Under the pieces are notes generated by a model that made no database searches, was not told the origin of the DNA, and saw nothing but the letters and a program-made list of their open reading frames with translations. A DNA stretch of 36,427 bases, taken from Minisyncoccota bacterium. Its GTDB lineage: Bacteria; Patescibacteriota; Minisyncoccia; Phycocordibacterales; PALSA-1337. Shown here one piece after another: positions 11,381 through 23,732 of this stretch (positions within the stretch are counted from its first letter, which is position 1; the number at the start of each line of letters is the position of its first letter). The stretch spans positions 1 through 36,427 of the forward strand of contig JAQTPC010000002.1 of assembly GCA_028713005.1 (NCBI GenBank), written 5' to 3'. The position numbers and the translations under genes were made by a program.

Positions 11381-11902
11381 ATGAAAAAAACAGCTATATA
11401 TGTCGGCAGATTCAACCCATTCCATAATGGCCATCATGCCGTAGTGAGCAAGATGCTTGATTTACACGGCAAAGAAAATTGTTTGATGATCATTGGAAGT
11501 TCAAACGCCCCTTTCTCGCTCCGTCATTTCTTTTCATATAATGAGCGCAAGCAGTTCATACAAAAAGTATTTCCTGATATTAAGCTTGTCGGTCTACCTG
11601 ATTATCATAATGACAAAGAATGGTTGGCAGCATTGGATGACATACTGAAAGTCGGGGGGATCAATCCTACTGAAGTGACGTTTTTTGGTGGATGCCAAGA
11701 AGACATACGTTTCTTTTTAGAAGACGGTAGAGACTGTACGATACTTAACCGTTTTGATGGTACTTCATTGAAGACTTCTGCCACCGAGGTGCGTGATGCA
11801 TTGATAGCAGGTCGTCCACTCGATCACCTTGTCCACGAATCTATCTTGTCTGATATGAAGAAATTGTTCGCTGAAAAGTGGGAGAAATTTAAAAAGATAT
11901 AG
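11381..11902 (+). CDS. nicotinamide/nicotinate-nucleotide adenylyltransferase-like (NadM-type) nucleotidyltransferase
   Basis: MKKTAIYVGRFNPFHNGHHAVVSKML (GRFxPxHxGH), LMIIGSSNAPFSLRHFFSYNERKQFI, LKTSATEVRDAL. Confidence 0.8.
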   Translation: MKKTAIYVGRFNPFHNGHHAVVSKMLDLHGKENCLMIIGSSNAPFSLRHFFSYNERKQFIQKVFPDIKLVGLPDYHNDKEWLAALDDILKVGGINPTEVTFFGGCQEDIRFFLEDGRDCTILNRFDGTSLKTSATEVRDALIAGRPLDHLVHESILSDMKKLFAEKWEKFKKI

Positions 11903-11972
11903 CGCAGTGGGCGATATTGACTATTATGGATAAATGTGATACTTTCTTCATTAAGAAAGGATCTTTACATAT

Positions 11973-12722
11973 ATGCAAGTACATACTGTTGGAACACGAC
12001 AATTCTGGGCTACAGGCTTGGAGGTTGCTGAACGCACAAAATTCCTTAACTGCTCCTTGTTTGTGAATTGGGTCAATTGCTTGGATTCTCGCATCAGGCT
12101 CGAACGAGTCAAAATCGTCTCGGTTGATTATAAGCCAAATGGCGATGCGATCTTTGCCAAGCTGTCAGTCACGGCATTCGATGACAACCGTATAGGCAAG
12201 CAGATCATCCCTGATGTCATCTTCCTCCGCGGCAACTCAGTGGCCATATTTCCCATACTTATTTCGAAAGAGACAGGGCAGAAATATGTGGTATTCACTG
12301 AACAAGTCAGGTTACCATTCGGCGGCCAGTTGGTCGAGATACCTGCTGGAATGATGGATCAAGAAAAAAACTTCATCGGCGTTGCAGCCAAAGAGTTCAA
12401 AGAAGAGATTGGCATCGCCATCACTGCAGAAGATTTGACGGCACTCACAGCGAACAGGCCATTTCATCAGCCACCACTGATGTTTCCGCGAGGCATTGCT
12501 GTTTCGCCTGGCGTGTGCGATGAGATGATGCAGTTCTATCTCTTTCGCAAAACTTTGCCACAGGCGGATATCGAAGTGCTCCAAGGTGCTCTGACAGGCA
12601 ATCAGAATGAAGGTGAAAGCATCTGTCTCAAGATCGTTCCGTGGGAAGACGTGCCATCGGCAACATGTGATGGTAAATTCTTTACTGCCTACGCACTCAT
12701 GCACTTGCAGGGATTGATTTGA
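11973..12722 (+). CDS. Nudix hydrolase, ADP-ribose pyrophosphatase type
   Basis: EIPAGMMDQEKNFIGVAAKEFKEEIGI Nudix box in NUDT5/14-like context. Confidence 0.82.
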   Translation: MQVHTVGTRQFWATGLEVAERTKFLNCSLFVNWVNCLDSRIRLERVKIVSVDYKPNGDAIFAKLSVTAFDDNRIGKQIIPDVIFLRGNSVAIFPILISKETGQKYVVFTEQVRLPFGGQLVEIPAGMMDQEKNFIGVAAKEFKEEIGIAITAEDLTALTANRPFHQPPLMFPRGIAVSPGVCDEMMQFYLFRKTLPQADIEVLQGALTGNQNEGESICLKIVPWEDVPSATCDGKFFTAYALMHLQGLI

Positions 12723-12746
12723 ACGCAACTATTCTGTTTCAATCAA

Positions 12747-12780
12747 AAGGCTCTCCACCCCGGAGAGCCTTTTTTATTTT
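12747..12780 (+). terminator. intrinsic terminator of the Nudix gene
   Basis: AAGGCTCTCC-ACCCC-GGAGAGCCTT then TTTTATTTTT. Confidence 0.9.
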
Positions 12781-12792
12781 TCTATAAGTACA

Positions 12793-12828
12793 AATATATA
12801 AAAAGCCATCGTATCGCTACGATGGCTT
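12793..12828 (-). terminator. intrinsic terminator of prs
   Basis: AAGCCATCGTA-TCGC-TACGATGGCTT, perfect 11-bp stem, T-run on minus strand. Confidence 0.85.
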
Positions 12829-12841
12829 GAGTCAGATGATT

Positions 12842-21622: not shown

Positions 21623-21660
21623 CGATGTATGAAGAAAAAAGCCAAACTGCGCAGGCAGAA

Positions 21661-21688
21661 GCGCGCGCCGCATAAAGGCGGCGCGCGC
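21661..21688 (+). repeat. GC-rich perfect hairpin, 11-bp stem
   Basis: GCGCGCGCCGC-ATAAAG-GCGGCGCGCGC. Confidence 0.85.
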
Positions 21689-21757
21689 ACAAAAACACTG
21701 AAAAAACAGCAAAAACGAAACAAACAAACAAAAACAACGAAACGGAAAGCATCACCA

Positions 21758-22852
21758 ATGAAGACTACTAATAGTTCGCAATTACCTATCCCACAGCATT
21801 TCAACCCTCAGACCGTCGGAATGGTCTATCGCGTTGATTATGCAGCACTCGAACCGGCGGCACTCGCGTGGCGCCGACAACACAATCTGTCTCTCGCATC
21901 GCAAGATGCGAAGACGGTGTCCTTGCTCATTGTTGACGCCCAGAATACGTTCTGCATCCCCGATTACGAATTGTATGTCGGCGGGCGGAGCGGCACTGGC
22001 GCCATCGACGACAATCGTCGTCTTGCGCAGTTCATCTATCGCAATCTCGGTCTCATCACCATGATCGCGCCGACGATGGACACGCATACGGCCATGCAGA
22101 TATTCCACCAGGACTTCTTCGTCAACGCGAAAGGGGAACACCCGACGCCCGTCGTCACGAATCCGCCGATCAATTCGGCTACGATCCGTAGCGGCGAGTG
22201 GCAAGTCAACATGGAGATCGCATGGTCGTTGTCGGAAGACAAAAGCCATGCGGCGGTCGCGCGGCAATACAATGCCTTGAAACAGTTTGTCTTGCATTAT
22301 TGTGAGCAGCTGGAGAAGGACGGTAAATTCGGCCTGACAGTTTGGCCGTATCATGCCATGTTGGGCGGTATAGGCCATGCTCTCGTGCCGGCCATCGAAG
22401 AAGCGTGCTTCTTCCATAACCGTGCCCGGGCGAGCCAGACGCGCTTCGAGATCAAAGGCGGAAATCCCCTCACTGAGAACTATTCCATCCTGCGTCCCGA
22501 GGTGCTTGCGGACAGCCGTAACAACCCGATCGCCCAGAAGAATGCACGGTTCATTCGCACACTCCTGACCTCCGATCGCGTCATCATTGCCGGTCAAGCC
22601 AAGAGCCATTGTGTGGCTTGGACCATTCAGGACCTCCTGAATGAGATCAAGGCGGTTGATCCCGAGCTCGCGAAGAAAGTCTATCTGCTGGAAGACTGCA
22701 CCTCACCGGTCGCGGTCCCCAATCCGGCAGGTGGCTTCTTTGTGGACTTCACGGACGACGCTGATAAGGCGTTCGCCCGATTCGCTCAAGAAGGCATGCA
22801 CATCGTGAAATCAACGGATCCCGTTGATGCATGGCCTGACTTCCTGAACTAA
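21758..22852 (+). CDS. nicotinamidase/isochorismatase-family hydrolase (nicotinamidase-like)
   Basis: SLLIVDAQNTFCIP (catalytic Asp), MDTHTAMQIFHQDFF (D-x-H...H metal site), FEIKGGNPLTENYSIL (Lys in nicotinamidase-like KGxxP context), IIAGQAKSHCVAWT (catalytic Cys); alternative start 21629. Confidence 0.8.
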   Translation: MKTTNSSQLPIPQHFNPQTVGMVYRVDYAALEPAALAWRRQHNLSLASQDAKTVSLLIVDAQNTFCIPDYELYVGGRSGTGAIDDNRRLAQFIYRNLGLITMIAPTMDTHTAMQIFHQDFFVNAKGEHPTPVVTNPPINSATIRSGEWQVNMEIAWSLSEDKSHAAVARQYNALKQFVLHYCEQLEKDGKFGLTVWPYHAMLGGIGHALVPAIEEACFFHNRARASQTRFEIKGGNPLTENYSILRPEVLADSRNNPIAQKNARFIRTLLTSDRVIIAGQAKSHCVAWTIQDLLNEIKAVDPELAKKVYLLEDCTSPVAVPNPAGGFFVDFTDDADKAFARFAQEGMHIVKSTDPVDAWPDFLN

Positions 22853-22880
22853 ACGGAAGTATTCACACAACAACAAAATC

Positions 22881-22910
22881 GGCTGGTGGCGGACATGTCT
22901 ACCACCAGCC
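22881..22910 (+). repeat. intra-operon hairpin, 9-bp stem
   Basis: GGCTGGTGG-CGGACATGTCTA-CCACCAGCC, no T-tract. Confidence 0.7.
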
Positions 22911-22937
22911 ACATCCCAGAAAGATACTTAGATAGTT

Positions 22938-23732
22938 ATGAGCACAAATAGCAATAGCAAGTCAGCACAACTCATTGGTGATGCCCTCGAGCAAGGCCTT
23001 CTATCCCAGGCGGGATTTGGGGCGCTCAGCGTCATTGATGTCGGTCACCAGATAACGGCAGCGCTCGGAGCTCCAGCGATGGACACGAACGCCACCGAAG
23101 TTACGCTGGTTCAGCTCCTCATTGACGACTCCGGTTCAATCCGTATGGTCGCAGGTAACACTGAAGCCGTGCGGTCGGGTCACAACACTGTCCTCGATGC
23201 CCTCAAAGGCTCGAAACAAGGGGACGGCGTCCAGGTCCATTGCAAATACTTGAATGGCACCATTCTGTATCCGTTCGTTACGCTCGATGCGGCGGCCGAG
23301 ATGACTCCGCAAAACTACAACCCGAACGGCGGCACGCCCTTGTATGACCAGTCGCTGGTGATTCTCGCCACACTGATCGCCAAGGTCACTGACTTCGAAA
23401 ACTCGGGCATTCCCGTTCGCACCGTCACGTGTATCGTCACCGACGGGGCAGATATGGGTTCGCAGGCTACGGCAGCCCAAGTCGCCAAGGTCGTGCGTGA
23501 TCTCCTGAAGAAGGAATCGCACATCATCTGCGGCATGGGCATTAACGATGGAAGCACCGACTTTCATCAAGTCTTCACCGACATGGGTATCCAGAAGGAG
23601 TGGATCTTGACCCCGGGCAACAGTCCGAGCGAGATCCGTAAGGCCTTCGCCGTCGTCTCGAAATCGGCAGTCCGTGCCAGCCAGAACGCTGCGAGCTTCT
23701 CGAAGCAAGCGGCTGGTGGTTTCGCGGCGTAA
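22938..23732 (+). CDS. VWA-domain protein (TerY-like)
   Basis: MIDAS-type LLIDDSGSI (DxSxS), NGGTPLYDQS, CIVTDGADMGS. Confidence 0.85.
   Translation: MSTNSNSKSAQLIGDALEQGLLSQAGFGALSVIDVGHQITAALGAPAMDTNATEVTLVQLLIDDSGSIRMVAGNTEAVRSGHNTVLDALKGSKQGDGVQVHCKYLNGTILYPFVTLDAAAEMTPQNYNPNGGTPLYDQSLVILATLIAKVTDFENSGIPVRTVTCIVTDGADMGSQATAAQVAKVVRDLLKKESHIICGMGINDGSTDFHQVFTDMGIQKEWILTPGNSPSEIRKAFAVVSKSAVRASQNAASFSKQAAGGFAA

What the first reader, a model, noticed from the sequence alone, without database searches (positions are those of the whole stretch)
11381..23732. Near-complete nicotinamide-to-NAD+ salvage locus with its own regulator
One region holds a NadM-like adenylyltransferase (11381), ADPR-type Nudix (11973), prs (PRPP supply), pncB, NadE, a SLOG-like protein, NrtR and a nicotinamidase-like enzyme. 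These cover each Preiss-Handler step from nicotinamide to NAD+ (PncA, PncB, NaMN adenylylation, NadE) plus PRPP supply and ADP-ribose handling. Such concentration is unexpected in a reduced genome with otherwise scattered pathways, and it implies dependence on exogenous nicotinamide or nicotinate.
Basis: partly seen in the sequence, partly recalled or inferred. Interest (0 to 1): 0.8.

Follow-up and report, generated by a model that had tools for sequence, protein, structure and literature searches.

The report
NAD recycling island with kinase switch
A tiny symbiont-type bacterium carries a rare gene island that can rebuild the essential cofactor NAD from its breakdown products, and its regulator sits next to a protein-kinase/phosphatase control unit containing the nicotinamidase; the same unit and DNA control site recur in cyanobacteria, pointing to an apparently unreported link between protein phosphorylation and NAD supply.

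Summary
The window encodes a NadM-like adenylyltransferase, an ADP-ribose-type Nudix, Prs, PncB, glutamine-dependent NadE, a SLOG-like protein, NrtR and a nicotinamidase with a complete active site. The genome (98% complete, 841 kb, Patescibacteria) lacks nadC and holds single copies of these enzymes; nearly all relatives lack them (pncB 3/61, nadE 2/61), and the region is GC-rich against its flanks: an accessory island.

The nicotinamidase lies inside a PP2C–kinase–vWA triad (TerY-P type) transcribed divergently from nrtR. The same NrtR–PP2C–kinase–nicotinamidase–vWA order recurs in cyanobacteria (usually with an ADP-ribosylglycohydrolase) and in at least six other Patescibacteria, where it can run as one operon into Nudix–PncB–Prs–NadE. 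The nrtR/PP2C gap holds a palindrome, TAGTGT-N7-ACACTA, found at the same place in nearly all these loci, and before pnuC–nadR in another genome: the likely NrtR operator.

Best reading: NrtR senses ADP-ribose and derepresses the triad and nicotinamidase; the island rebuilds NAD from both cleavage products (nicotinamide, and ADP-ribose via Nudix and Prs). Control of pncB, nadE and prs by NrtR here is not supported. Kinase targets are unknown. The pathway is known; the NrtR–triad–nicotinamidase module looks new.

The parts
11381..11902 (+). NadM-like NMN/NaMN adenylyltransferase (HNGH and SATEVR motifs)
   Evidence: PF01467; NMNAT models; archaeal NMNAT, MJ0541, 1.1e-07; only NadD-type match in the genome; 71% identical homologue next to pncB in G005
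11973..12722 (+). Nudix hydrolase, ADP-ribose/ADP-sugar pyrophosphatase type
   Evidence: PF00293; NUDT5 and ADP-ribose pyrophosphatases; Nudix also inside the operons of L048 and L061
12842..13738 (-). Prs, ribose-phosphate diphosphokinase
   Evidence: (TIGR01251 108.6 bits, cut-off 113)
13862..15133 (-). PncB, nicotinate phosphoribosyltransferase
   Evidence: NF003704 423.9 bits vs 379; TIGR01514 303 vs 269.6; 1ybe, 1.9e-102
15306..17258 (-). NadE, glutamine-dependent NAD synthetase
   Evidence: NF002730 848.8 vs 473 bits
17419..17844 (+). SLOG cluster-4-like protein (start codon uncertain, 17374 or 17419)
   Evidence: PF18306, 25.5 bits, just below cut-off 26.3
17910..18650 (-). NrtR, Nudix-domain transcriptional repressor
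   Evidence: PF21906 NrtR_WHD 2.2e-25; NF050029 190 bits, below its cut-off of 400; NrtR/AraR structures
18683..18699 (.). predicted NrtR operator AGTGT-ACTTAGA-ACACT (flanked by T..A) in the nrtR/PP2C divergent promoter
   Evidence: strongest PWM hit of the window, 27.5 bits vs 10.9 for the next
18744..19742 (+). PP2C-type protein phosphatase (triad member)
   Evidence: PF13672 1.4e-18
19739..21622 (+). protein kinase with C-terminal zinc ribbon and extra domain (triad member)
   Evidence: no Pfam family; kinase motifs read in the sequence; weak kinase hits in PDB; 57% identical to the kinase of L011
21629..22852 (+). nicotinamidase of a long (about 350 aa) isochorismatase/nicotinamidase-superfamily type; likely start 21758
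22938..23732 (+). vWA-domain protein with MIDAS motif DDSGS (triad member, TerY-like)
   Evidence: no Pfam hit; motif read in sequence; 60% identical to L011 vWA, same position in 16 of 16 cyanobacterial triads

Best explanation
The region is an accessory island that rebuilds NAD+ from its own breakdown products, coupled to a phosphorylation control unit. When NAD+ is cleaved, it gives nicotinamide and ADP-ribose. Nicotinamide is deamidated by the PncA-like enzyme; ADP-ribose is split by the Nudix enzyme to AMP and ribose-5-phosphate, which Prs turns into PRPP; PncB, the NadM-like enzyme and NadE then rebuild NAD+. NrtR sits on TAGTGT-N7-ACACTA between nrtR and the PP2C gene and represses both directions; rising ADP-ribose releases it, so the PP2C-kinase-nicotinamidase-vWA operon is made when NAD+ is being consumed. 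The kinase, phosphatase and vWA protein most likely tune an NAD-metabolic or stress target by reversible phosphorylation. Shown by sequence: the genes, their recurrent order, the conserved palindrome, rarity in relatives. Inferred from known families: enzyme reactions, ADP-ribose as ligand, repression. Guess: the phosphorylation target.
For: Enzyme identities. Co-oriented operons in two other Patescibacteria: L061 NrtR-PP2C-kinase-PncA-vWA-Nudix-X-PncB-Prs-NadE, and L048 PP2C-kinase-PncA-vWA-[adenylyltransferase + NAD kinase fusion]-Nudix-PncB-deoxyribosyltransferase-like-Prs-NadE; Nudix and Prs recurring there support the closed loop. Same module without all salvage genes in L011, L108, L109, L110. 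In cyanobacteria kinase-PncA-vWA in fixed order in 16 of 16 triads, 12 with NrtR and 12 with an ADP-ribosylglycohydrolase beside PP2C. Palindrome AGTGT-N7-ACACT in the nrtR/PP2C interval, exact or one mismatch, in all 14 other loci compared, upstream of PP2C in L108, L109, L110, and in tandem before pnuC-nadR elsewhere in genome G101. Only two exact copies in the whole own genome, both in this locus. Accessory; GC 50% against 43-44% in flanks. No nadC.
Against: The salvage genes on the minus strand and nadM/Nudix on the plus strand have no strong operator in this genome. Most cyanobacteria sampled carry the same nicotinamidase without the triad (13 of 59 loci with enough flank have kinase or vWA), so the enzyme works without it. 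Nicotinamidase activity, ADP-ribose binding, operator binding and kinase targets are untested. The second exact palindrome (15739-15755) lies inside nadE and has poor flanks, probably chance. Prs scores just under the subfamily cut-off.
Confidence: 0.62

Rival explanations
1. Plain salvage of scavenged nicotinamide or nicotinate by an NAD auxotroph; the kinase triad is an unrelated neighbour.
For: Complete Preiss-Handler route and no nadC; genome lacks a second route.
Against: The triad, nicotinamidase and NrtR keep their order and operator across two phyla and several Patescibacteria, so the triad is not an incidental neighbour. No PnuC found; other transporters not tested.
Confidence: 0.2
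2. The module is a defence or counter-defence system: it restores NAD+ or removes ADP-ribose marks after NAD-depleting immunity, toxins or phage ADP-ribosylation.
For: TerY-P triads are linked to phage and stress response (PMC4978471); Nudix-regulator plus ADP-ribosylglycohydrolase plus vWA neighbourhoods were proposed as counter-ADP-ribosylation systems (PMC9503650); cyanobacterial members carry the glycohydrolase; patchy distribution; distant nicotinamidase relatives in 462-595 kb phage records.
Against: No PADLOC model matches the module convincingly; no nuclease, toxin or other effector in the locus; own genome has no ADP-ribosylglycohydrolase; the salvage enzymes are ordinary metabolic ones.
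Confidence: 0.15

Closest known systems
NrtR regulons of NAD metabolism (Rodionov et al. 2008, cited in PMC9503650; text not held here)
   Same: Nudix-winged-helix regulator next to NAD salvage genes, predicted palindromic operator, ADP-ribose as likely ligand
   Different: Here the predicted target is a PP2C-kinase-nicotinamidase-vWA operon; I could not check whether that paper lists such targets
TerY-P triad (vWA, STY kinase, PP2C; described in PMC4978471 and references)
   Same: three-gene PP2C, kinase with zinc ribbon, vWA unit
   Different: contains a nicotinamidase between kinase and vWA, is divergent to NrtR, and lacks Ter genes, helicases or nucleases
ARG-centred systems with a Nudix regulator (Iyer et al. 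2022, PMC9503650)
   Same: Nudix regulator, phosphatase, vWA and, in the cyanobacterial form, an ADP-ribosylglycohydrolase
   Different: phosphatase is PP2C with a partner kinase, a nicotinamidase is constant, and the Patescibacteria form lacks the glycohydrolase and adds salvage enzymes
Phage NAD+ reconstitution pathways NARP1/NARP2 (from memory)
   Same: rebuilding NAD+ after cleavage; Prs-like and PncB-like genes side by side
   Different: PncB here is a canonical nicotinate phosphoribosyltransferase with NadE, i.e. the deamidating route

Membership tests
Preiss-Handler salvage pathway from nicotinamide | PncA, PncB, Na/NMN adenylyltransferase and NadE all encoded | tested here: met
   activities not tested
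Preiss-Handler salvage pathway from nicotinamide | sole NAD route (no de novo synthesis) | tested here: met
   no nadC match in own genome, 12 of 14 controls positive; nadA and nadB not searched
Nicotinamidase (PncA) | fold and catalytic D, K, C plus metal-binding D-x-H | tested here: met
   D60, D108, H110, K233, C285 invariant in A1; best PDB fold matches are nicotinamidases; no sequence-level family hit
Nicotinamidase (PncA) | hydrolyses nicotinamide | not testable with these tools
   needs an assay; other amidases share the fold
NrtR family | Nudix domain plus NrtR winged-helix domain | tested here: met
   (PF00293, PF21906 above cut-offs); NF050029 below its own cut-off
NrtR family | palindromic operator near NAD genes | tested here: met
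   binding not tested
NrtR family | ADP-ribose releases DNA | not testable with these tools
   needs a binding assay
TerY-P triad | adjacent PP2C, protein kinase and vWA genes | tested here: met
   kinase and vWA assigned from motifs and context, not from a family model
ARG-centred system (PMC9503650) | ADP-ribosylglycohydrolase present | tested here: not met
   no PF03747 match in own genome; met in 12 of 16 cyanobacterial triads
NARP1-type phage NAD reconstitution | ADPR-PP synthetase and nicotinamide ADPR transferase | tested here: inconclusive
   PncB is canonical (423.9 vs 379); the Prs substrate (ribose-5-phosphate or ADP-ribose) cannot be told from sequence here

The most novel reading that the evidence does not exclude
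NrtR, a PP2C-kinase-vWA triad and a nicotinamidase form a dedicated, horizontally spread NAD-status signalling system, shared by cyanobacteria and Patescibacteria, in which NAD breakdown (ADP-ribose) switches on a protein-phosphorylation response together with NAD rebuilding, protecting cells against NAD-depleting attack or stress.
Probability: 0.3. Interest if true: 0.78.

Novelty: new variant of a known kind. Interest (0 to 1): 0.58.

Why it matters
About nine in ten sampled Patescibacteria lack a convincing NadE (39 of 384 score above 80 bits, my count), so how these cells obtain NAD is open; an island that can be gained or lost shows one answer. The fixed NrtR-PP2C-kinase-nicotinamidase-vWA order with one shared operator gives the target-less TerY-P triads a concrete, testable metabolic context, and can be tested in culturable cyanobacteria that carry the same unit.

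Tried and rejected
IMG/VR scan for the nicotinamidase found nothing. Phage origin: only distant (about 30%) relatives in four phage records; rejected. Recent cyanobacterial donor: not supported; NrtR of Patescibacteria is separate from cyanobacteria (100/100), the kinase groups with L011 (100/100), and the nicotinamidase tree is unresolved with long branches. PF02540 phylum search is swamped by weak matches to what are probably other ATP-pyrophosphatases, so only strong ones were counted. The exact palindrome at 15739-15755 was considered a second operator and set aside: inside nadE, weak flanks. PADLOC hits too weak to use. The NrtR 2008 paper is not in the library, so whether it lists this operon is unchecked.
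Full report
What is there. The window is contig C22 of an 840,691-base, 97.8% complete genome whose relatives and gene content place it in the Patescibacteria (relatives named). It carries, from left to right, a NadM-like adenylyltransferase (+), an ADP-ribose-type Nudix hydrolase (+), Prs (-), PncB (-), glutamine-dependent NadE (-), a SLOG-like protein (+), NrtR (-), then a plus-strand series PP2C phosphatase, protein kinase, nicotinamidase, vWA protein. PncB and NadE pass curated equivalog or subfamily cut-offs; Prs and SLOG fall just under theirs; the kinase, nicotinamidase and vWA proteins match no Pfam family.

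The nicotinamidase. It has about 350 residues, longer than usual PncA, and 8000 or more relatives, mostly (where named) cyanobacterial 'isochorismatase' or 'nicotinamidase-related amidase'. The alignment keeps D60, the metal motif D108-x-H110, K233-G and C285 as invariant columns; H117 is nearly invariant; naming these as the PncA catalytic and metal residues rests on general knowledge of the family. The AlphaFold model (pLDDT 82.5, pTM 0.84) matches solved nicotinamidases best (2wta, E 3.8e-07; 3v8e; 3r2j). A profile search by sequence finds only a fragment of the A. baumannii nicotinamidase, so the assignment rests on fold and residues.

Is it the only NAD route? nadC is absent. PncB, NadE, the NadM-like gene, Prs and the nicotinamidase each give one match in the genome, the window's own, and the only NadD-type match is again the window's gene. 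PnuC is absent. nadA, nadB, NAD kinase and other transporters were not searched.

How common is it? Among 60 relatives, pncB was found in 2 others, nadE in 1, the nicotinamidase in 1, nadM in 2 and prs of this type in no other member of the genus. Across 384 genomes of the phylum the nicotinamidase is in 7 at E <= 0.001 and a strong NadE domain (above 80 bits) in 39 by my count. The cluster has 50.4% GC against 43.2% and 44.0% in the flanks; the kinase, nicotinamidase and vWA genes reach 55-57%, while nadM (40%) and nrtR (42%) look native. It is an accessory island, probably acquired, possibly in more than one step.

Wider context, the main result. In G024 of the same genus (L011) the order nrtR | PP2C-kinase-nicotinamidase-vWA is repeated at 40-60% identity, with a Nudix fragment at the contig end and pncB with a NadM start on another contig. 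G240 (L108), G101 (L109) and G168 (L110) hold the same unit. In Parcubacteria SI039_bin36 (L061) one strand reads NrtR-PP2C-kinase-nicotinamidase-vWA-Nudix-X-PncB-Prs-NadE, and in Gr01-1014_20 (L048) PP2C-kinase-nicotinamidase-vWA-(adenylyltransferase fused to NAD kinase)-Nudix-PncB-deoxyribosyltransferase-like-Prs-NadE. Of 76 cyanobacterial loci with the nicotinamidase, 16 have kinase and vWA, always in the order kinase-nicotinamidase-vWA; 12 have NrtR and 12 an ADP-ribosylglycohydrolase between PP2C and kinase. In other cyanobacteria the nicotinamidase stands alone. Protein clusters on shared contig lengths (37,842 and 52,482 bases) suggest further genomes with nicotinamidase, PncB and NadE together.

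The operator. AGTGT-N7-ACACT is exact at 18683-18699 in the 93-base nrtR/PP2C gap. The same interval in 14 other loci of both phyla holds an exact copy or one with a single mismatch, and L108, L109 and L110 have exact copies upstream of PP2C. A weight matrix trained on the other loci scores the window site 27.5 bits; the next best place in the window scores 10.9. The own genome has two exact copies in 841 kb, both in this window; the reversed control pattern has one. In G101, where the control pattern has none, two further copies stand in tandem just before pnuC and a NadR-like gene, on another contig: an independent prediction of NAD genes by the motif. Here no good site precedes prs, pncB, nadE, the Nudix or nadM, so their control by NrtR is not supported.

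Mechanism. Enzyme reactions follow from the families. Nudix plus Prs lets the ADP-ribose half of broken NAD supply PRPP for the PncB step, while the nicotinamidase prepares the other half: a closed recycling loop, consistent with Nudix and Prs recurring in the L048 and L061 operons. That NrtR senses ADP-ribose is established for the family (cited in PMC9503650) and inferred here. What the kinase and phosphatase act on is unknown; the best guess is an NAD-metabolic or stress protein. A defence role is a live rival because TerY-P triads (PMC4978471) and Nudix-regulated glycohydrolase neighbourhoods (PMC9503650) have been tied to phage or stress response, but no effector gene is present and PADLOC finds nothing convincing.

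Origin. NadE and PncB are nearest to other Patescibacteria. Trees separate the NrtR of Patescibacteria from cyanobacteria, pair the kinase and NrtR with those of L011, and leave the nicotinamidase unresolved. A single donor or direction of transfer cannot be named.

Novelty. Preiss-Handler salvage, NrtR and TerY-P triads are known. Text searches found no paper joining these terms, but the key NrtR paper is not held and the original triad paper was not read, so novelty of the joined module is provisional.

Noticed in passing
L147:5757-5807 with L147:5824-7516 (G101): Tandem copies of the palindrome just upstream of pnuC and a NadR-like gene, far from the triad in the same genome.
   Followed up: yes
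L048:7513-8916: Protein joining a cytidylyltransferase-like (NadD-type) domain and a NAD kinase domain, inside the salvage operon.
   Followed up: partly
L109:13906-15507, L108:17110-18660, L010:327-1985: A family of about 520-550 residues with an N-terminal stretch resembling NMN adenylyltransferases but without HxGH, and (in two of three by Pfam) a methyltransferase domain; recurs beside the module or pncB in three Patescibacteria.
   Followed up: partly
L009:13412-14161 and L108:18715-19536: Histidine phosphatases beside nadE or beside the module in two different genomes.
   Followed up: no
phage records LR756511.1, LR756500.1, LR745208.1: Phage genomes of 462-595 kb encode about 30% identical relatives of the long nicotinamidase.
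   Followed up: no
window 8569-9183: Minus-strand ORF with a sub-threshold Nudix match, a possible further Nudix protein near the island.
   Followed up: no
relatives: Most genomes of the genus and order give no match to this Prs; PRPP supply in these cells is unclear.
   Followed up: no
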